From an uncultured Halieaceae bacterium (GTDB taxonomy: Bacteria > Pseudomonadota > Gammaproteobacteria > Pseudomonadales > Halieaceae), in contig CAJXNM010000014.1 in NCBI GenBank assembly GCA_913057135.1, positions 1-63,367 on the forward strand: a stretch of DNA of 63,367 nucleotides. The letters run 5' to 3'. Within the stretch, counting starts at the first letter, position 1, and each line of letters starts with the position of its first letter. Below the pieces are notes generated by a model. It was not told the origin of the DNA. It saw only the letters and a program-made list of their open reading frames with translations, and searched no databases. Below are positions 43,878 through 52,906 of the stretch, in pieces. A program made the position numbers and the translations under genes.

Positions 43878-45026
43878 TTATTCACTATCGGCGATCGTGT
43901 GAGAAGATTCAGAGTCTATTGAGCCTCGCTGGTGGTTGTCAGCAGCCATAGCGATAGTGGCCACAGCCTGCTGCACTGCACCCGTCAGGTGTTTAGGCTC
44001 AATCTCAGTGGGGTACATAACCAGGTAGCCTACCGCCGGATCAATTTCAACTAAGCCACCCCTACCGTCATCTAAGGTGTGACCACGCAGGTCGGTTTCG
44101 TATCGCAGTGCCACATCCGGAACCACCGTAGCGGGTGCATCGACCATTAACACCGCGAAACTGAAGGTGCCAATCCGAGCCATGGTGTCGGTGGCGCGCA
44201 AGCTACCAGCCACCCGAGTCGCAATATCGGACAGGACTTTGTTCTGTAAATGCCGCTGAGACAAGTTGCCCATCCCACTCAAGCCCTCGAGCGCAATAGT
44301 GACCAGTGCCACAGCCTGATCATTCCTCTGCGCTCGCCCCAACTCCCGCTCAAGCGCCTGCTCTAGCCCCGCGCGATTGGCCACCTGGGTAACCGGATCA
44401 ACGAGCATCAGTTCAGCACTTATCTGTGTGCTGGCGGCGCGGCGTAACACGACCGGGAAAAACACACCAAAATCGTCAAGCAAGGCTAACTCATGGGGCG
44501 TCTGCAGCGCGGGGGCATTGGGGTCTGCGCAGACGATAGCGCCTACAACAATATGGTCTTCAACAATGGGAATCGCCAGTACCGAACGACTCATACTGTC
44601 GGGCACAACCCCCAAATCTTCAGCTTGCTGCGCTGTAAACCATTTATGGCTTGCAGGTTCACCGAACAGCGAGGTCACAACATCGGAGTCGGGAGTGAGG
44701 TGCAGCTGATCACCGGCACTCGAGCGATCAGGGAACAATCGCGCAATCTCTCCAACAGGGTCGTGCAAGACAAACCTGACGCTGTCCGACTGCAACAGGC
44801 ATGACATCCCCGCCACCCCCTCTGCGATCAGCGCATCGACTCGATCAACCTCCACCAAGGCCCTTTGCAGATGTTGGAGCTGCCGCCAAAAAGAAGTATC
44901 GATGGCAAAGGGCGAGGCAAGCGAAAGGTCTTGGTCCACATCAGTCGGCAGCCCCAACACGATTTCCTCTATCGCAGCGCCATCCTTGAGGGATTCTGAT
45001 GGATCTGGGTTGTGCTCTTTCGTCAT
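43878..45026 (-). CDS. GAF plus degenerate GGDEF domain protein
   Basis: This 382-residue soluble protein has a GAF-like sensor domain at about 55-205 and a GGDEF-like domain at about 215-365 (LMLVDPVTQVANRAGLEQALERELGRAQR). The GGDEF loop itself reads RIGTFSFAVL (about residues 283-292), so the catalytic Gly-Gly-Asp/Glu-Glu-Phe set is missing and it is unlikely to make cyclic di-GMP. It may act as a sensor or scaffold. It is upstream of gspC on the same strand and divergent from the thiamine operon. Confidence 0.78.
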   Translation of the reverse strand: MTKEHNPDPSESLKDGAAIEEIVLGLPTDVDQDLSLASPFAIDTSFWRQLQHLQRALVEVDRVDALIAEGVAGMSCLLQSDSVRFVLHDPVGEIARLFPDRSSAGDQLHLTPDSDVVTSLFGEPASHKWFTAQQAEDLGVVPDSMSRSVLAIPIVEDHIVVGAIVCADPNAPALQTPHELALLDDFGVFFPVVLRRAASTQISAELMLVDPVTQVANRAGLEQALERELGRAQRNDQAVALVTIALEGLSGMGNLSQRHLQNKVLSDIATRVAGSLRATDTMARIGTFSFAVLMVDAPATVVPDVALRYETDLRGHTLDDGRGGLVEIDPAVGYLVMYPTEIEPKHLTGAVQQAVATIAMAADNHQRGSIDSESSHTIADSE

Positions 45027-45062: not shown

Positions 45063-45068
45063 TATACT
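45063..45068 (+). promoter_or_regulatory. Probable -10 box of the thiamine operon
   Basis: TATACT at 45063-45068 lies 10 bases before the TPP riboswitch P1 helix, which fits a transcription start near 45075. No good -35 box is seen at the expected distance. The call rests on position. Confidence 0.5.
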
Positions 45069-45077
45069 ATCGCGGAA

Positions 45078-45161
45078 ACCTGCGGGGTGGCCACGCGCCT
45101 GAGACGTCTTTTAGACGAACCCGTTGAACCTGAACCGGATAACGCCGGCGTAGGAACAGGT
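45078..45161 (+). ncRNA. TPP riboswitch (THI element)
   Basis: The conserved THI-box core is present in order: ACCTG (45078-45082) as the 5' P1 arm, GCGGGGTG, CTGAGA at about 45099-45104, a variable P3 hairpin (GACGTCTTTTAGACG), then ACCCGTTGAACCTGA, CCGGATAACGCCGGCGTAGGAA, and CAGGT (45157-45161) as the 3' P1 arm. These are the bases that bind thiamine pyrophosphate. It lies about 140 bases before the TonB receptor start, so when TPP is plentiful it should reduce expression of the operon. No strong U-tract terminator follows; a hairpin at 45183-45217 and GGCGC/GCGCC at 45256-45268 could be the expression platform. Confidence 0.93.
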
Positions 45162-45182
45162 GCAAATCGCTCTCCGATTGTC

Positions 45183-45268
45183 GTCTGCCCGGCCGCTATC
45201 CCTCTACATAGGCAGACACATGTCACCGCAACAAGCTTGTAGCCATCGGCTAGACGGCGCCTTGCGCC
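45183..45268 (+). promoter_or_regulatory. Possible expression platform of the TPP riboswitch
   Basis: Two inverted repeats follow the aptamer: GTCTGCC (45183-45189) with GGCAGAC (45211-45217), and GGCGC (45256-45260) with GCGCC (45264-45268). Neither is followed by a U-run, and no good Shine-Dalgarno precedes ATG 45301. Control may therefore be at translation or by Rho; this is an inference. Confidence 0.35.
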
Positions 45269-45300
45269 AACACCCCAACATCGCTGAACAACCCTTTGTG

Positions 45301-47370
45301 ATGAATTCGCGTCTACTGAGTGGCATCTTGCTAACCGCCCTGGCTTCCACAACGCACGCCACATCGCCGGTGCTCGAGGAGATTATTGTCAATGCTTCAT
45401 TGCAGCCAGAGCTCAACAGCCGCAGTTCAGTGACGGTATTTACCCCCGCACTCGTTTCCCAGCGGGGAGCTAGACACCTGGAGGATCTGTTATCAGCGGC
45501 ACCCAACGTCAATGCTGCCAGCGGCGCATCCCGGGGCCGTTTTTTTCAAGTGCGTGGCATTGGTGAGCGCAGTCAGTTCGTCGAGCCTGTCAATGCCTCG
45601 GTAGCAATGCTCATCGATGGTATCGACTTCACTGGCATCGGCGCCGTTGCCACCACCTGGGACATAGCACAAGTTGACATCCTGCGCGGCCCTCAAGGCA
45701 CGTTATTTGGGGCGAATGCACTGGCAGGTCTCATTAACTTCAGCACACAGGGGGCCGATAGCGATGCCCCCTCCACCTTGAGTGTTGGTGTTGAAAATGA
45801 CAATGGCCGCCGAATTGGATTAGCTTACGGCACCCAATGGGGGGAGCACTGGCATGGTAGAGCGGCACTGCAGCGCTATCAGAACGACGGCAGTGTGACC
45901 AATACGTGGCTCAACCGCAGCGACACCAATGCCCAAGACGAACTGACTGGCCGGATTTCAATGGCATGGGTTGGGGACCAACATCGCATCGACCTAGGTT
46001 TATATCGCATCGATATCGACAACGGGTATGACGCATTTTCCCTCGATAACACCCGCCAAACCCTTTCGGATCAGCCCGGTAAAGACCAGGCGACCACCGA
46101 TGCCGCTCGGCTACATTGGCAATTCGCGGGTCCTGTTGAGTGGTCAGCCCAATTGAGTATGGCCAACACCGACACCCTGTACAGCTACGATGAAGATTGG
46201 AGCTACGTGGGTATCGCGCCAGAGTTGGAATATAGCTCCTTTGATGCCTATCAACGTGATCGCGACATGACCAGCTTGGAGTTGCGTGCGGCGCAACAGT
46301 CCGAGTCCCTGTCCTGGGTGGTAGGCACCTATCTTCGGGACGAGGACGAGGCCCTGGAACGACGCTACACCTATCTGGACAAGCCCTTCACCAGTAATCT
46401 CGCCATCGAGACTCGCGCCCTATTTGGACAACTGGACGTACCACTATCTGAGCGCTGGTCAAGTTATGTGGGTGCCCGTTTCGAGACCCGCGACACGAAT
46501 TACAGCGACAACGCCGGTGTCACGGAGACGTTTTCAGATAGTTTGTGGAGCGGTCGACTTGGTCTGGAGTGGCAACTCAATAACGCGCATCGCTTCTACG
46601 GTGGCCTCAGTCGAGGAGTACGGGCTGGCGGTGTCAACGCCGACTTGCTGGCCAGCCTCAATGCGCTCGATGACGATGTATCGATATCCTTGGGTGGGCT
46701 TGGTATTTTCAAGGAGGAGTCCCTTCTGAATATGGAAATCGGTTGGCACTGGCGCTCACCCAATGGACAAATAGTCAGTGACATCACCTTGTTCTCCATG
46801 TTGCGGCGGGATCAGCAAGCCAAAAGCTCACTCACGATACCCCGAGCGGATGGCAGCACCGCTTTCATCGATTACACCAACAATGCAGCGCGAGGCCACA
46901 ATCGAGGATTGGAGTGGCAGGGGCGATGGCAAGTATCCAGCCGCTTCCAGCTACGCGGTGCTTTGGGCTTGCTTGAGGCCGAATTCGATAACTACGTTAC
47001 CCCGCTAGGTGACGATTTATCGGGGCGAGAAACCCCGCAATCGCCACAGACCATGGCACAAATTGCTGCGAGCTATACCCTCTGGCAGGGGCTGGATGTC
47101 GGGCTTGAGCTTACCACCATGGATGGCTATTTCTTCTCCGATCGACATGACACCCGCGCACCTAGTCGCCAACTGGTTAATGCAAATCTAAACTGGCGCG
47201 CCGGTAATTGGTCTGCGCAGCTATGGGCTCGCAACCTGAGTAATGAAACCTACTACACCCGCGGGTTTGGGAGCTTCGGCAACGATCCACGCAAAGCCTA
47301 TGCGGTTGAGCCCTATTACCAATTGGGCGAACCGCGCCGCTTTGGCTTAGATCTCAACTACAGCCTTTAA
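45301..47370 (+). CDS. TonB-dependent outer membrane receptor, predicted thiamine/precursor importer
   Basis: This 689-residue protein has a signal peptide (MNSRLLSGILLTALASTTHA), a TonB-box-like stretch (VLEEIIVNA), a plug domain at about 35-160 (LEDLLSAAPNVN, FFQVRGIGERSQF, VDILRGPQGTLFGANALAGLIN) and a beta-barrel to the C-terminus ending RRFGLDLNYSL with the terminal aromatic-like pattern. The frame is open to 45160, but ATG 45301 starts the signal peptide. The TPP riboswitch and the downstream genes indicate that it brings in thiamine, a phosphorylated form or a precursor. The barrel itself does not reveal the substrate. Confidence 0.87.
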   Translation: MNSRLLSGILLTALASTTHATSPVLEEIIVNASLQPELNSRSSVTVFTPALVSQRGARHLEDLLSAAPNVNAASGASRGRFFQVRGIGERSQFVEPVNASVAMLIDGIDFTGIGAVATTWDIAQVDILRGPQGTLFGANALAGLINFSTQGADSDAPSTLSVGVENDNGRRIGLAYGTQWGEHWHGRAALQRYQNDGSVTNTWLNRSDTNAQDELTGRISMAWVGDQHRIDLGLYRIDIDNGYDAFSLDNTRQTLSDQPGKDQATTDAARLHWQFAGPVEWSAQLSMANTDTLYSYDEDWSYVGIAPELEYSSFDAYQRDRDMTSLELRAAQQSESLSWVVGTYLRDEDEALERRYTYLDKPFTSNLAIETRALFGQLDVPLSERWSSYVGARFETRDTNYSDNAGVTETFSDSLWSGRLGLEWQLNNAHRFYGGLSRGVRAGGVNADLLASLNALDDDVSISLGGLGIFKEESLLNMEIGWHWRSPNGQIVSDITLFSMLRRDQQAKSSLTIPRADGSTAFIDYTNNAARGHNRGLEWQGRWQVSSRFQLRGALGLLEAEFDNYVTPLGDDLSGRETPQSPQTMAQIAASYTLWQGLDVGLELTTMDGYFFSDRHDTRAPSRQLVNANLNWRAGNWSAQLWARNLSNETYYTRGFGSFGNDPRKAYAVEPYYQLGEPRRFGLDLNYSL

Positions 47371-47395
47371 GACCACTCATCAGGGAAAACCCACT

Positions 47396-47668
47396 ATGCG
47401 ATTATCTGCTGAACTCAGTCTTTACCCGCTTGCTGGCAATGTCGAACAACCCGTGCTGGATTTCATTGATGATCTAGTCGCGTCGGGTGAAGTGTCCGCC
47501 GTCACCAATGCCATGAGCACCCAGATCGTTGGCGATGCCGCAGCGGTATTTCGCGCTGTAGAGCAGGCGTTAACTGCTAGTTACGAGCGGGCCGGTCGAC
47601 AGGTCTTGGTCGCTAAATTCATACCCGAGCTAAAGCTCGATATTGCCGCTGCAGCAAACACGGAATGA
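47396..47668 (+). CDS. MTH1187/YkoF-family thiamine-binding protein
   Basis: This 90-residue protein matches the thiamine-binding MTH1187/YkoF family (COG0011): it begins MRLSAELSLYPLAGNVEQPVLDFIDDL and has MSTQIVGDAAAVFRAVEQAL, the ferredoxin-like fold pattern. YkoF in Bacillus binds thiamine or hydroxymethylpyrimidine and sits with the ykoFEDC transporter. Here it has no signal peptide, so it is probably cytoplasmic. Its stop overlaps the pnuT-like start (ATGA). Function as carrier or sensor is an inference. Confidence 0.82.
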   Translation: MRLSAELSLYPLAGNVEQPVLDFIDDLVASGEVSAVTNAMSTQIVGDAAAVFRAVEQALTASYERAGRQVLVAKFIPELKLDIAAAANTE

Positions 47669-48246
47669 CCACGCCTTCGGTGCTAGAACTTGCGGCGGTA
47701 CTGCTTGCACTTGTCTACGTTGTGTTGGCCATTCGCCAACGACGCAGTTGCTTCTATGCTGCCAGTTTTAGTGCAGTCCTCTATATCGTCATCTTTGCCA
47801 AGGCCCGACTGTACATGGAGGCTGCCCTGCAGATTTTTTATGTGGCGATGGCGGTTTACGGCTGGTTTATATGGGGACAACACCACAGCGCCGAGCAACG
47901 TCCCGTTACACGCTGGCCACTTGCCCGCCAAGGATGGCTGATTGCGGGGGTTGTTGCCATTGCGGCGGGAATCGGTGAACTACTGAGCAGGTACACCGAC
48001 GCAGCGCTTCCCTTTGCCGATAGCCTAACAACGGTAGCCGCCTTGGTAGCAACCTGGATGGTAACTCGCAAAATACTCGAAAATTGGCTTTGGTGGATTG
48101 CGATAGACCTGCTTTCCATAGGGCTGTATGTTGAGCGAGAATTGTGGGCCACCGCGGTTCTGTTCGCAGGCTATGTTGTACTGGCGTGGGCCGGCTACCT
48201 CGCTTGGCGCCAGACCTTATCGCAGCCGGAAAGTGCGCTCAGGTAA
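47665..48246 (+). CDS. pnuT: PnuC-family vitamin permease (PnuT-like)
   Basis: This 193-residue integral membrane protein has about 7 helices and PnuC-family features: early VLAIRQRRSCFYAASFSAVLY, then AVYGWFIWGQ and the late ENWLWWIAIDLLSIGLYV. PnuC proteins carry nicotinamide riboside; the PnuT branch carries thiamine and is found with TPP riboswitches. The operon context selects PnuT. Uptake by this family is facilitated diffusion, so a kinase is needed to trap the substrate, and one follows. Confidence 0.85.
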   Translation: MTTPSVLELAAVLLALVYVVLAIRQRRSCFYAASFSAVLYIVIFAKARLYMEAALQIFYVAMAVYGWFIWGQHHSAEQRPVTRWPLARQGWLIAGVVAIAAGIGELLSRYTDAALPFADSLTTVAALVATWMVTRKILENWLWWIAIDLLSIGLYVERELWATAVLFAGYVVLAWAGYLAWRQTLSQPESALR

Positions 48247-48252
48247 CTCAGC

Positions 48253-49086
48253 ATGCTCATTGAAACCATTCTAAACCAGTACGACAGCTGGCAGCTCACA
48301 GAGCCCTTACTCGCCCCTCCCGAAATCGTAAACCATCTTACGCGAGGCACGACCCACCGGGCGGTCAAGGTCTGTGGCCCTACAGCCTCTGGATCTCGGT
48401 GTTTTGTGATTCGCTACGCATCCCGCGATCTCGCCACGTTAGCGATGCCACCGGAACACGAGCGACGCGTCATGCAGCAGGCATGCTCAATGGGCCTGGC
48501 GCCGCGCTTGGTCCACTGGCACGACAACGCCCGCGTGACCGTCTCTGAATTTGTCAATGGCCACATGGATACACCCGACCCTGCGCTGTTGGGTCAAACC
48601 CTGAGACGGATTCACGAGCTTCCCATCAAGGCCGACCCCATCTCACTCAGCACCCATCTTCAGCGATACACCAGCCACGCGATAGAGCGCGGTGTGGCAC
48701 CGGAGCAATTGATCGACCCCAATTTTGAGCCCTTGGCCCGCGCTATCTCGCTCCTTGAATCGAGTGCCCCCGTGCTGTGCCATAACGATCTCGGTCGAGG
48801 TAATCTTATTATCACGGGTGAGCAGGCCGTGGTTATCGATTGGGAGTACGCAGCGATGGGTAATCGTTACTTCGATTTAGCAGCTGCCACCGCTGGCTGG
48901 CCAGAACTCGATCCAGGCGCTGTTATCGCTGCAGCCATTCCCAGGGACTTCTCCCCAATGGAGTGGCAGGCCGCTCTAGGGGTGTACGCGGCAATTGAAT
49001 GGAATTGGTATCAGGCGTCCGGATTGCCGATGCCCGAACACTTGAGCGCCGACGCTCTGGTTGAACGGCTCAATAGCCTGCCGTGA
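48253..49086 (+). CDS. Choline/aminoglycoside phosphotransferase-fold kinase, predicted thiamine kinase
   Basis: This 277-residue protein has the phosphotransferase catalytic loop VLCHNDLGRGNLIIT near residues 174-188 and the metal-binding AVVIDWEYAAMGNRYFDLA near residues 194-212. The family includes ThiK, which phosphorylates thiamine. Position after PnuT supports a thiamine kinase that traps imported vitamin, but choline or other substrates are possible. Start is ATG 48253; the stop overlaps the next gene GTG. Confidence 0.75.
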   Translation: MLIETILNQYDSWQLTEPLLAPPEIVNHLTRGTTHRAVKVCGPTASGSRCFVIRYASRDLATLAMPPEHERRVMQQACSMGLAPRLVHWHDNARVTVSEFVNGHMDTPDPALLGQTLRRIHELPIKADPISLSTHLQRYTSHAIERGVAPEQLIDPNFEPLARAISLLESSAPVLCHNDLGRGNLIITGEQAVVIDWEYAAMGNRYFDLAAATAGWPELDPGAVIAAAIPRDFSPMEWQAALGVYAAIEWNWYQASGLPMPEHLSADALVERLNSLP

Positions 49087-49988
49087 ACCCGTGGCATATT
49101 TTAGGGGCCGGCGCCATTGGCAGTCTGTTTGCCTTGCGCCTTCATGACTTGGGTGAATCGCTACAACTCATTCGTCGCACAGATGACGGCAATACCCTCA
49201 CACTGACATTCCAGCACGCCGCTAACGACAAGCCACAGCAGCAGCGAACCATCGTGCTACCACAACAAACCGCCGCGGCTGAAGATCCGATAACCCACCT
49301 CCTCGTGGCGACCAAGGCCTTCGACGTCGAGCATGCCATCGCCTCCATCGCACAACGATTATTGCCAAAGGCCACGATCCTGTTGGTTGGCAACGGTATG
49401 GGCTACCACGAACGGATAAAAGACGCCTATCCACAATGCGTCGTCTACGCCGCCACAACCACCGCAGGTTGTTATTGCAGCGGAGTCAGAGAACGCATCA
49501 TCGTTAGCGACGGTCATACGGATATCGGTCGACTCGACAACCAAAGTGACACACCCGGATGGTTTCGCCCATGGCAGCGCGCAGCGTGGTCTTGTCGTTG
49601 GCGCACGGACATGACACACCGTCTACTCACCAAACTGGCGATTAATAGCGTTATCAACCCGCCAACTGCCTTGCACGATGTCCCAAACGGTGCGCTGCTA
49701 TCACCACCGCTGTTGGCAGAATTCGAGCAAGCCATCACCGAGACGGCGCGGCGATTACACTGGGCTGGGTTTTCCGATGTTGCGCAGCTACTGCCGCAGC
49801 GCGCCATTGAGGTAGCCAGCAGCACACGACATAACACCTCTTCAATGCGCGCCGATAAACGCGCCGGCAAACCGACAGAGGTGGACGCCATACTCGGCCA
49901 CCTACTCAACGAGCTACAGGGTCCAGCACCTGCGCCAGAAGCACCACTGCTGACACATTGGTTCAGTCAGCTGCAACCTGTCGACTGA
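49083..49988 (+). CDS. 2-dehydropantoate 2-reductase (PanE/ApbA) family protein
   Basis: This 301-residue NADPH-dependent enzyme family reduces ketopantoate for pantothenate synthesis. The Rossmann motif ILGAGAIGSLFALRL is at residues 5-19, and KLAINSVINPPTALHDVPNGALL at about 185-207 is the substrate region with the catalytic Lys and Asn. It starts with GTG at 49083, coupled to the kinase. ApbA/PanE was historically linked to thiamine phenotypes in Salmonella, so its presence in a riboswitch-led operon is of interest. Its 3' end overlaps the kinase gene on the other strand by 26 bases. Confidence 0.8.
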   Translation: MNPWHILGAGAIGSLFALRLHDLGESLQLIRRTDDGNTLTLTFQHAANDKPQQQRTIVLPQQTAAAEDPITHLLVATKAFDVEHAIASIAQRLLPKATILLVGNGMGYHERIKDAYPQCVVYAATTTAGCYCSGVRERIIVSDGHTDIGRLDNQSDTPGWFRPWQRAAWSCRWRTDMTHRLLTKLAINSVINPPTALHDVPNGALLSPPLLAEFEQAITETARRLHWAGFSDVAQLLPQRAIEVASSTRHNTSSMRADKRAGKPTEVDAILGHLLNELQGPAPAPEAPLLTHWFSQLQPVD

Positions 49989-51357
49989 AATCCTGCAATA
50001 GTCCCGACCAAATACCAGCCGACTCAGTGGCCACCATACTCACCTGATGCCAATGCACATCCAGTCCTCGCTGATGCTCACCGATCAACTGGCAGAAGGT
50101 GGTTTGACAGCTTAACGAGACCGTCAAGGATTGAACCTCCGCATCTGCCTCACTCTCAAGAAAGCCCGCTTGCAGCTGCTCAATGAGCCAAGTCCTATTA
50201 AGTTGTGACGGCATGGGTGTATTAGGTGTAATGGCCATGCTGTCCACAATGACAGTGATGTCAGTTGACTGACGTTGTTGTCCCATTAACGCAACGGCCA
50301 TCAGAATCAGTAGTGCAGCGCTGAACGTCAAACCCGCAACCAGCGGCTTTGGCCAGGATGTTGAACGAACCATGGCGCGAGCAAGCCCCTTGGGAAAGTA
50401 CCCGCCATCCCGCTGATGACGATGTGCACCATGCCCGCGGTGATGATCCAATGAGGTCATTAGCTCGGGGGAAGAGGGCTCCAAAGCGGCCGAATCGTCA
50501 TCCTGAAAAACATGACCCATCAACACCTGTCGACCACCATCAATCCCCTCGGGTAACTCATAGCGGGCCTCGGCTAACTGTTGTACCACCCTATCGGCGG
50601 TGGCTCTCTGCTTCGGCTCGGGGGTCGTGAGTGCAGTGGTGCAATGCCAAAGGGTGGTTGCCAAATTCACCATTGGGCCGTCAGGCGTAGCACAGCATAC
50701 CCGATAGCTGCCATCTCCCTGTTCAAGCAATTCTGGCGTAGCACCCGAGAGCCCCCAATGAAGCAATGCCCCCAGCGAGTAGCAGTCAGTGGCCTCCGAT
50801 AGCAACCCTCCAAGCCTGGTTTCCGGTGCACGAAAACCTGGAACGACCGCGTTTAATGCGCGTTCCCCCGTGCGGGCCATTTGACCAAAATCAATAAAGC
50901 GGGCGTGGCCATGGTGATCAACCACCACATTGCCGGGGGCAATATCCCCGTGCACCAAGCCGGCTTTGTGCAAAGCCGCCAGCGCAGACGCCAAATCTAC
51001 CGCCACGGCATACCAGGCACTCAGGCCAATAGGGCTATCCATCCCGGTCAAATCGACCAGCGGCATGCCTTTGACATATTCGATCACCAGCCACTGAGCA
51101 CCCTCGTGATGCAGGCTATCGTATACAGTAGGCACCTGAGGCAGATCGGCGCCTGCCATAATCGTCAACCAGTCCGACTCCGCGCCTTGCTGCTCTGACG
51201 ATAAACGTTTGAGCACAACCGACCGACCCAGCCGCGGATCCTGTGCAAGCCATGCGACACCCTCACCACCCGCGCCAAGGGTACGGATCGGGATAAAAGG
51301 GGGCGGTAGCGTCAGCTGGGCAGATCTGCCCCCGTTGCTGCGAAAAAGTGCTGCCAC
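49963..51357 (-). CDS. Membrane-anchored Ser/Thr protein kinase
   Basis: This 464-residue Hanks-type kinase has a glycine-rich loop GAGGEGVA (28-35), the ATP Lys in SVVLKRL (K50), the catalytic loop HGDIAPGN (136-143), DFG (156-158) and APE (177-179). HRD is changed to HGD, which makes it a non-RD kinase, with the catalytic Asp and Asn kept. A transmembrane helix at about 338-357 (LVAGLTFSAALLILMAVALM) leads to a 107-residue extracytoplasmic domain with two cysteines (C417 and C422, in CQTTFC). It follows the FHA-sigma-54 gene by one base, so they form an operon and probably a pathway. Confidence 0.88.
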   Translation of the reverse strand: MAALFRSNGGRSAQLTLPPPFIPIRTLGAGGEGVAWLAQDPRLGRSVVLKRLSSEQQGAESDWLTIMAGADLPQVPTVYDSLHHEGAQWLVIEYVKGMPLVDLTGMDSPIGLSAWYAVAVDLASALAALHKAGLVHGDIAPGNVVVDHHGHARFIDFGQMARTGERALNAVVPGFRAPETRLGGLLSEATDCYSLGALLHWGLSGATPELLEQGDGSYRVCCATPDGPMVNLATTLWHCTTALTTPEPKQRATADRVVQQLAEARYELPEGIDGGRQVLMGHVFQDDDSAALEPSSPELMTSLDHHRGHGAHRHQRDGGYFPKGLARAMVRSTSWPKPLVAGLTFSAALLILMAVALMGQQRQSTDITVIVDSMAITPNTPMPSQLNRTWLIEQLQAGFLESEADAEVQSLTVSLSCQTTFCQLIGEHQRGLDVHWHQVSMVATESAGIWSGLLQDFSRQVAAD

Positions 51358-51358
51358 G

Positions 51359-52906
51359 CTAGGTCAATCCAAGTTGCCGCAAACGCGGCCGCAAGGCGTG
51401 ACGGGACACTTTTAAACGTCTAGCCAAATCGGCCAAATCTGCGCTGTCGGACGCAACACGTCGGATCTCATCATCACTAATATCAGTTATCAACACGAGA
51501 TCTGGGTGCTCAACCACTCGACGCCGAAGACTAGCGCGATTCATCCCTAGAGCATCGGCAGTGGCCTGCAACTCATAGTCATGTGCCGCAAATACCTCGG
51601 CTAAATACTCCGGCGTAATGGAAGTGTCGGCCTCGTCTTGAGGGTCGATTTTGCTGGGCATACGATGATTGAGTTCGATCAGCGCCTGATCACCACTTGC
51701 CGCGCGGGTTACCAGTTGCAGCAACTCTCGCGAGTTACCCTTAAACGTCAATTTCAACAGATTGAAAAAGAACCGAGCCCAGGCAGCGGCCAACAGGCCA
51801 TTGGAGCCACAGTTTAAAAATGTAAGGTGGCTCACAATGGCATGGGGGTTTCGAATCAGCCAAGCGACCCCTTGGGTACCCACGTCCTCGAGACGATAGC
51901 GCAGCGGAGGCACCACAATACGATGTCCCGACAAACGCGTGAGTAGTGCATGACGAAACTTTGACCCCTCACCGAGATCGGCGTCCGTTGCAGCGATGAA
52001 ACGAACATCTACACGCTGAATACCGCCGCCAACCACCTGTACTTCACCCTCTTGTACAGCACGCAATAATTGGGCTTGAACCGATTCGGGGGCATCGGCT
52101 ATTTCATCGAGAAATAAACTTCCTCCGTCGGCTTCTCGCATGTAGCCAAGCCTAGCTAGCGCACCGGTGTAGGCACCCTTAACACAACCAAACAACTCGG
52201 AGGCCGCCAATGTATCTGGGATCACTGCCATATTGACAGCAACCATTGGCTGTAAGGCACGCGCACTTAAGCGATGTATTTCACGGGCCGCTACCTCCTT
52301 GCCAGAGCCCGACTCACCCAGTAACAACGCTGGCATGGCGGTATTAGCCGCCTGCAAAACGTTGTAACGCAAGCGTGCCATCTCAGGTGACGTACCCACA
52401 AGTCCACTGCTTTGTGCGGGAGCTTGGGGCACCGACTCGGGACAATCAGGGTCTTGTACAACGCGCAGCAGAAGCACCACGCCATGACCCAGCCGCAACC
52501 CGATGCCTCGCAATAACTGCTCGGGATCTGCAACACACTGGGTTAACTCCTGCGGCCCGATGAGACCACTTGCACCCTCAGGGATACGAAGGCGCAAACT
52601 GGGGACGGCCCCATTAACTCCCTCGAGCATCTCTGGATTTGGGGGACCCAATGTAATGTTCAGCGCGCTGCGACTGACATGGGGTTCCAACAAGGGCTTG
52701 TCGTCACTGAAGGCAGGGGAAAAGCGCCCCACCTCTAATGGCTTGCTCATGGAACATCGATCATTCCACTGAAGTACATCAACGAAGTGACCGACGCGTT
52801 GCCAATCGGGATGAAACACAACCGTCAACCGCAAACGCCACGGATATGACGCTTTCTGGTGACCCTGCGTAATTAATGCAGGCGCAGTTTTCAAGGTTGT
52901 TTGCAC
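51359..52906 (-). CDS. FHA-domain sigma-54 transcriptional activator
   Basis: This 515-residue protein has an N-terminal FHA-like domain at about 25-110 ([22 protein letters not shown]), a region of unclear role, then an AAA+ domain with Walker A GESGSGKE (about 199-206), the sigma-54 contact loop GAYTGA (variant of GAFTGA, about 243-248), and Walker [14 protein letters not shown] Fis-type helix-turn-helix ([19 protein letters not shown]) and a second HTH-like segment at the end ([19 protein letters not shown]) follow. It would bind phospho-Thr proteins by FHA and drive sigma-54 promoters. The kinase gene follows after one base. Confidence 0.88.

What the first reader, a model, noticed from the sequence alone, without database searches (positions are those of the whole stretch)
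45063..49988. TPP-riboswitch-led thiamine uptake and salvage operon with an uncommon gene set
The riboswitch core is seen directly. It is followed by five closely spaced, same-strand genes, three of them with 4-base overlaps: TonB receptor, MTH1187/YkoF-type protein, PnuC-type permease, phosphotransferase-fold kinase, PanE-like reductase. TonB receptor plus PnuT plus a kinase is known from Bacteroidetes thiamine loci; adding a YkoF-type protein and a PanE-like enzyme in a gammaproteobacterium is a combination I do not recognise.
Basis: partly seen in the sequence, partly recalled or inferred. Interest (0 to 1): 0.75.

Follow-up and report, generated by a model that had tools for sequence, protein, structure and literature searches.

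The report
Riboswitch-controlled thiamine uptake operon
This stretch is a vitamin B1 import-and-trapping operon in a marine bacterium that appears unable to make the vitamin itself; its odd fifth gene looks like an ordinary vitamin B5 gene that came to sit behind it when a neighbouring gene disappeared.

Summary
Riboswitch and five same-strand genes are real. The TPP aptamer (72.4 bits, cut-off 54.3) is the only one found in this genome. TonB receptor, YkoF-like protein, PnuC/PnuT permease and APH-type kinase form a unit found beyond this family. Of 61 sampled Halieaceae genomes 57 have a TPP riboswitch, each with one right before this receptor. The window's genome shows no ThiC, ThiE or thiamine pyrophosphokinase and no credible ThiG, but has ThiL. 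Simplest reading: intact thiamine is imported, phosphorylated to TMP by the operon kinase, completed to TPP by ThiL. HMP/thiazole salvage is not supported. PanE is the genome's only ketopantoate reductase and belongs to the old divergent yajQ|panE pair. In 34 family loci yajQ lies between kinase and panE; in 13 without it, and the window, panE abuts the kinase. So the fifth gene was probably captured by yajQ loss; whether TPP now controls it is the new testable point. Known kind of system, a variant. Two, not three, junctions are 4-base overlaps.

The parts
45073..45173 (+). TPP riboswitch aptamer (RF00059)
   Evidence: 72.4 bits, gathering 54.3; only one in genome
45183..45217 (+). possible expression platform: 7-base inverted repeat (45183-45189 / 45211-45217) just before the likely receptor start codon ATG 45220
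   Evidence: seen in sequence and in the MFE fold (fold of the whole leader not unusual, z -0.83); pairing test not significant in the window (p 0.55); in the family 12 of 37 loci p<0.05
45220..47370 (+). TonB-dependent outer-membrane receptor (omr1/OMthi-like); start 45220 likely, 45301 possible
   Evidence: PF00593, PF07715; 45-56% identical to 11 family receptors
47396..47668 (+). single-domain YkoF/MTH1187-type thiamine-binding-like protein, 90 aa
   Evidence: PF01910 23.0 bits, cut-off 24.9; 13 of 14 aligned proteins PF01910, 12 of 14 PF07615; YkoF structures
47665..48246 (+). PnuC-family permease, PnuT by context
   Evidence: PF04973 170.9 bits; TIGR01528 85.3 bits, cut-off 42.45
48253..49086 (+). 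APH/choline-kinase-fold small-molecule kinase, proposed thiamine kinase
   Evidence: PF01636; TIGR02721 thiK 65.5 bits, cut-off 299; invariant HNDL..N and DWE in 12 of 12 aligned
49083..49988 (+). PanE/ApbA ketopantoate reductase, probably captured by the operon after yajQ loss
   Evidence: PF02558, PF08546; TIGR00745 171.4 bits, cut-off 141.35; 31% identical to E. coli PanE
43878..45026 (-). GGDEF protein, conserved divergent neighbour upstream (not part of the operon)
49963..52906 (-). protein-kinase gene and sigma-54 activator gene, conserved convergent neighbours downstream (not part of the operon)

Best explanation
A TPP-repressed thiamine uptake and trapping operon in a thiamine-auxotrophic member of Halieaceae. 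When TPP is low the riboswitch lets the receptor be made; thiamine crosses the outer membrane through the TonB receptor, crosses the inner membrane through the PnuT permease, may be bound in the cytoplasm by the YkoF-like protein, and is trapped as thiamine monophosphate by the APH-type kinase; ThiL elsewhere in the genome makes TPP, which closes the loop. Shown here: the RNA, the genes, their conserved order, the missing biosynthesis genes, the presence of ThiL. Inferred: the substrate of receptor, permease and kinase, the direction of regulation, and the role of the YkoF-like protein. The fifth gene is the genome's only panE, an ordinary pantothenate enzyme that came to lie behind the kinase when yajQ was lost from between them.
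For: Riboswitch. In a sample of 61 family genomes 57 have a TPP riboswitch at E up to 0.001 (56 over the Rfam cut-off) and 57 of those 57 have one right before this receptor (within 800 bases, same strand); of 62 sites, 58 precede the receptor and 1 precedes PnuT; the other 3 lie next to ThiC in the three genomes that have it. Own genome: no ThiC, no ThiE, no TPK, only a 21-bit fragment, below cut-off, for ThiG, ThiL at 299 bits. With no TPK, imported thiamine needs a thiamine kinase before ThiL, and this kinase is the only match to itself in the genome. Across the order the unit TPP-receptor-YkoF-PnuT-kinase recurs: 22 of 53 PnuT loci carry all five features (2 of those 22 are in this family). 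Papers: four cultured OM60/NOR5 strains all needed thiamine (PMC3679898, passages); in Bacteroides with biosynthesis deleted, loss of OMthi or pnuT gave severe growth defects under 100 nM thiamine (PMC5613172, passages). PanE: with yajQ between, the kinase-PanE gap is 314-984 bases in 29 loci and 4.5-7.8 kb in 5; without yajQ it is 113 or less in 13 of 13; the genomes of those 13 have no yajQ match anywhere; E. coli has the same divergent yajQ|panE pair.
Against: No activity is shown. The kinase scores far below the ThiK equivalog cut-off (65.5 of 299); across 12 family kinases the best single match is to GntI (5e-35) rather than ThiK (1e-27), and their profile's best solved relatives are choline kinases. 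The permease passes the PnuC (nicotinamide riboside) model, so PnuT rests on context. In 12 family loci the kinase is not with the riboswitch, receptor and permease, so its link to thiamine there rests on the missing TPK. 9 of 53 order loci have PnuT alone and 7 have PnuT and kinase without riboswitch motif or receptor in the stretch. The RBS-hiding hairpin is not significant in the window. Polarity of yajQ loss rests on E. coli and on the assumption that yajQ did not re-insert at the same place; on the unrooted tree four changes suffice, and the midpoint-rooted tree has yajQ-less branches near the root.
Confidence: 0.85

Rival explanations
1. The PanE-like enzyme is a true thiamine-pathway enzyme: it reduces a thiamine breakdown product or precursor, and its place behind the riboswitch reflects that role.
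For: 4-base overlap with the kinase in the five sampled genomes of the genus (in L102 by a possible GTG start) although PanE is only 37-41% identical between the window and its genus relatives.
Against: It is the only PanE match in the genome and PanB is present; it passes TIGR00745; many residues shared with E. coli PanE are kept; of 53 order loci PanE was seen near the unit only in two, both of this family; in 12 family loci it stays near the kinase where the riboswitch, receptor and permease are absent. The Salmonella panE-thiamine link concerns HMP-P synthesis by ThiC (PMC5965847, start of abstract in a listing), and ThiC was not found in this genome.
Confidence: 0.05
2. The system imports pyrimidine (HMP) or thiazole precursors rather than thiamine, with the YkoF-like protein as HMP binder.
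For: YkoF is listed as a thiamine/HMP-binding protein (PMC10881298, passage).
Against: No ThiE match in the genome, and ThiE over its cut-off in only 4 of 61 family genomes, so HMP and thiazole could not be joined by the known route.
Confidence: 0.05
3. The kinase is not a thiamine kinase but serves another amino-alcohol or nucleoside-like substrate, and thiamine is phosphorylated by an unknown enzyme.
For: Below the ThiK cut-off; GntI and choline-kinase relatives; retained without the transport genes in 12 family loci.
Against: Order-wide linkage to TPP-receptor-PnuT; TPK found in 0 of 61 genomes while ThiL is present, so some thiamine kinase is needed.
Confidence: 0.1

Closest known systems
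omr1(OMthi)-pnuT-tnr3 thiamine operon of Bacteroidetes
   Same: TPP riboswitch, TonB receptor, PnuT permease and a thiamine-phosphorylating enzyme in one operon (PMC5613172, passages)
   Different: no Tnr3/TPK-type enzyme found here (TPK 0 of 61); an APH-type kinase that needs ThiL takes its place; a YkoF-like gene is added
omr1 near a TPP riboswitch in SAR86 and Flavobacteriales marine genomes
   Same: receptor with nearby TPP riboswitch in marine bacteria (PMC10881298, passages)
   Different: the passages that I saw do not describe the YkoF-PnuT-kinase set or panE
TPP-receptor-YkoF-PnuT loci in Shewanella pneumatophori and S. fidelis
   Same: TPP core motif, receptor, YkoF and PnuT in the same order (L187 and L192)
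   Different: no match to this kinase or to PanE in the part of the stretch examined (about 6-16 kb of it) at E 1e-3
E. coli ThiK (YcfN) + ThiL route
   Same: thiamine to TMP to TPP with two separate kinases (ThiK route recalled; E. coli not among the TPK control matches)
   Different: the kinase here does not reach the ThiK model cut-off
yajQ|panE divergent pair of Gammaproteobacteria
   Same: divergent neighbours in E. coli and in the family loci that have yajQ beside panE
   Different: no yajQ in the five sampled genomes of the window's genus, so panE joins the thiamine operon

Membership tests
TPP riboswitch (RF00059) | score at or above Rfam gathering score | tested here: met
   72.4 against 54.3 bits
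TPP riboswitch (RF00059) | gene control by TPP | not testable with these tools
   needs reporter or RNA-seq
Bacteroidetes-type omr-pnuT-tnr3 operon | TPP riboswitch + TonB receptor + PnuT together | tested here: met
Bacteroidetes-type omr-pnuT-tnr3 operon | Tnr3/TPK-type thiamine pyrophosphokinase | tested here: not met
   TPK_catalytic in 0 of 61 genomes, control matches in 7 of 14
ThiK thiamine kinase (TIGR02721) | curated equivalog cut-off | tested here: not met
   65.5 against 299.45 bits
ThiK thiamine kinase (TIGR02721) | kinase catalytic motifs (HxDxxxxN, D-W-E) | tested here: met
   invariant in 12 of 12 aligned; motif meaning recalled
ThiK thiamine kinase (TIGR02721) | phosphorylates thiamine | not testable with these tools
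   assay needed
Thiamine_BP / YkoF (PF01910, PF07615) | Pfam gathering score | tested here: inconclusive
   window protein 23.0 against 24.9; 13 of 14 and 12 of 14 aligned proteins match at E up to 0.01, cut-offs not shown for the others
PnuC family (TIGR01528) | curated cut-off | tested here: met
   85.3 against 42.45 bits
PnuT (thiamine-specific PnuC) | transports thiamine | not testable with these tools
   context only: TPP riboswitch, missing biosynthesis genes
Ketopantoate reductase PanE (TIGR00745) | curated subfamily cut-off | tested here: met
   171.4 against 141.35 bits
Ketopantoate reductase PanE (TIGR00745) | sole copy beside PanB in the genome | tested here: met
   one PanE match, one PanB

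The most novel reading that the evidence does not exclude
In this genus the TPP riboswitch has captured panE, so that the only ketopantoate reductase of the cell, and with it pantothenate and CoA synthesis, is made in step with thiamine need: loss of yajQ rewired one vitamin pathway to the sensor of another, and the wiring has been kept over deep divergence within the genus. Against it: a terminator-like site sits on the kinase/panE junction of the window (49079-49096), though it was not found at the junction in four genus relatives.
Probability: 0.27. Interest if true: 0.5.

Novelty: new variant of a known kind. Interest (0 to 1): 0.37.

Why it matters
It gives a compact, checkable model of how a marine family in which most sampled genomes lack vitamin B1 synthesis genes obtains and activates the vitamin, with a kinase that the ThiK model does not recognise. 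It also gives an example of how a gene can come to lie in a riboswitch operon through loss of a spacer gene, which warns against reading function from operon membership alone. Whether CoA synthesis is now tied to TPP is directly testable.

Tried and rejected
Rfam over ten narrow relative loci gave 0 matches, most likely because their 1.5 kb flanks did not reach the riboswitch; wider stretches were then taken. Transcriptional terminator as expression platform: no terminator-like site on the + strand between the aptamer and the receptor. Translational platform by RBS pairing: enriched in the family (12 of 37 loci p<0.05) but median p 0.22 and p 0.55 in the window, so left as inference; the shuffles there kept base composition only. 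The sigma-70 promoter scan found none in the region nor at the junction in four relatives. The idea that yajQ was inserted rather than lost was considered because of the midpoint-rooted tree and set aside because E. coli has the same divergent pair. ThiG low-score matches: 16 of 61 genomes are over the 23-bit cut-off, but only 3 above 26 bits; the rest, and the own genome's 21.4 bits over 84 of 247 positions, were taken as fragments of other proteins. No structure prediction was run. Not checked: ThiD, TenA, ThiM, PanC, IlvC, and the TonB/ExbBD genes.
Full report
What is there. The aptamer at 45073-45173 is a full match to RF00059 (72.4 bits, gathering 54.3) and the only one in the genome. Five genes follow on the same strand: a TonB-dependent receptor (likely start 45220, end 47370), a 90-residue YkoF/Thiamine_BP-like protein (47396-47668), a PnuC-family permease (47665-48246), an APH/choline-kinase-fold kinase (48253-49086) and a PanE/ApbA reductase (GTG 49083-49988). 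Junctions are +25, -4, +6 and -4 bases; so two, not three, are 4-base overlaps. The YkoF assignment is just under the Pfam cut-off for the window protein; 13 of 14 aligned proteins match PF01910 and 12 of 14 PF07615 at E up to 0.01, and their profile finds YkoF structures.

Where it is. The window lies in an assembly of 2.86 Mb, 97.7% complete. A genome of the same family code shares an exact 2 kb stretch with Parahaliea mediterranea TN14-10, which NCBI places in Halieaceae. I therefore call the family Halieaceae; this rests on that one match.

Co-conservation. A search of 145 genomes drawn from the order with the permease found matches in 55, the window included. I fetched wider stretches for 53 of the other 54 (G129, a weak split match, was left out). 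By ORF comparison and a core-motif search, 22 of 53 carry TPP motif, receptor, YkoF, PnuT and kinase; 5 more carry all but YkoF; 9 have PnuT alone; 7 have PnuT and kinase only; the other 10 are partial, several at contig ends. Only 2 of 53 have PanE nearby, both in this family (L034, L057). Beyond these, two Shewanella genomes have TPP motif, receptor, YkoF and PnuT (16 of the 80 loci were examined).

The family. In a sample of 61 genomes of the family (window included) TPP riboswitches were found in 57 (62 sites; in one genome, G178, only below the Rfam cut-off). All 57 have one right before the receptor (same strand, within 800 bases); of the 62 sites 58 precede the receptor and one precedes PnuT; the other three lie next to ThiC in the three genomes that have ThiC (for two of the three the stretch itself was not fetched, only the coordinates compared). 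ThiC is in 3 of 61, ThiG above 300 bits in the same 3 (13 others pass the low 23-bit cut-off with 23-26 bits), ThiE over its cut-off in 4, TPK in 0, ThiL over its cut-off in 50. The own genome shows none of ThiC, ThiE and TPK, no credible ThiG, and has ThiL. Controls in 14 well-known genomes: ThiC found in 13, ThiG in 14, ThiE in 11, ThiL in 14 (9 over its cut-off), TPK in 7. Four cultured strains of the OM60/NOR5 clade all needed thiamine (PMC3679898, passages), and Congregibacter litoralis is described as needing thiamine (PMC2654016, passages).

Mechanism. With no detected route to make thiamine and none to join its halves, the cell must import intact thiamine (or its phosphates). With no TPK, imported thiamine must be phosphorylated once by a thiamine kinase before ThiL can act. 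The operon kinase is the only match to itself in the genome, has intact kinase motifs, and lies with the permease in many genomes of the order. Import by a PnuC-type facilitator drawn by phosphorylation is the known logic of PnuC systems (recalled). The kinase does not reach the ThiK equivalog score (65.5 of 299). For the window's protein ThiK is the best NCBIfam match, but across 12 family kinases the best single match is GntI, and the best solved relatives are choline kinases; so I say it works like ThiK and do not file it as ThiK. The YkoF-like protein begins without an evident signal peptide (alignment, judged by eye), so a cytoplasmic thiamine binder or buffer is my guess.

Control. No terminator-like site was seen between aptamer and receptor. 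Family members often have a hairpin that pairs with the Shine-Dalgarno sequence (12 of 37 loci at p<0.05, where about 2 are expected; median p 0.22), but the window's is not significant (p 0.55). Translational control is therefore inferred.

The PanE question. In Halieaceae the kinase lies beside the yajQ|panE pair. In 47 of 58 family loci both kinase and PanE are in the stretch. Where YajQ lies between (34 loci) the gap is 314-984 bases in 29 and 4.5-7.8 kb in 5; where it is absent (13) the gap is 113 or less. Three of the 13 gave large negative values (L145 -302, L141 -94, L102 -88) through over-long ORF starts: L102 has a GTG that gives a 4-base overlap, and the alignment starts put L145 and L141 near +7 and -1. 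The genomes of all 13 have no YajQ match anywhere, as has the window's (40 of 61 have one). In E. coli K-12 panE and yajQ are divergent neighbours, as in Halieaceae, so the pair is old and yajQ was most likely lost. A tree of PanE and the two downstream proteins (43 rows out of window plus 58 loci: those with PanE and at least one of the other two) needs four changes at least; if yajQ never returned, its midpoint-rooted form shows seven yajQ-less groups (my reading of the tree, quick method). In 12 family loci kinase and PanE are found while riboswitch motif, receptor and permease are absent from the locus (in L139 PanE is 6 kb from the kinase); all 12 genomes have the riboswitch and receptor elsewhere. 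PanE is the single copy, passes TIGR00745, keeps many residues shared with E. coli PanE, and PanB is present. So PanE is best read as ordinary pantothenate synthesis that was brought behind the thiamine operon. The 4-base overlap holds in the five sampled genomes of the genus, so co-translation with the kinase is plausible. Against common transcription stands a terminator-like site on the junction of the window (49079-49096), which is not seen at the junction in four genus relatives (one has a site 26 bases inside panE). Whether TPP controls panE is open.

Literature. Searches for PnuT/TonB/riboswitch, Halieaceae thiamine auxotrophy, YkoF/riboswitch, THI regulons, ThiK/TonB, OM60/NOR5 thiamine, Shewanella TPP regulons and ApbA/thiamine showed the Bacteroidetes system (PMC5613172), omr1 with TPP riboswitch in SAR86 (PMC10881298), and predicted thiamine receptors with PnuT (PMC2771747), all seen as passages; passages of PMC3400609, PMC10470507 and PMC3766115 were also seen. 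I saw no description of the four-gene set in Halieaceae or of panE behind it, but the library lacks most subscription journals, most listed papers were seen only in listings, and I did not see the RegPrecise collection or the text of Rodionov 2002, which may well list the four-gene set.

Verdict. Real, well conserved, mostly of a known kind. The uncommon look comes from panE, which has a simple historical explanation; the possible capture of panE by a TPP riboswitch is the most interesting open point.

Noticed in passing
G146:C17:78992-84437 (L178), G173:C1:1864146-1869659, G191:C2:8727-14229: Three of 61 family genomes have ThiC, ThiG and ThiE close together beside a second TPP riboswitch; looks like regained or kept thiamine synthesis, possibly by gene transfer.
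   Followed up: no
L159, L161-L168, L171 and L072: In part of the family a TPP-receptor-PnuT unit without this kinase lies elsewhere in the genome with more diverged receptor and permease, while the kinase (in four loci with YkoF) stays near panE.
   Followed up: partly
L170 (G197:C1:1098401-1098506): A second TPP riboswitch directly before PnuT with no receptor between.
   Followed up: no
window 43878-45026 (-): A GGDEF protein (weak GAF match) is a conserved divergent neighbour of the locus in many family genomes.
   Followed up: partly
window 49963-52906 (-): A protein-kinase gene and a sigma-54 activator gene form a conserved pair downstream of panE across the family; function not examined.
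   Followed up: no
G189:C7:63240-63737: A 56-bit ThiE-like stretch inside a 325-residue open frame, below the ThiE cut-off; perhaps a fusion protein.
   Followed up: no
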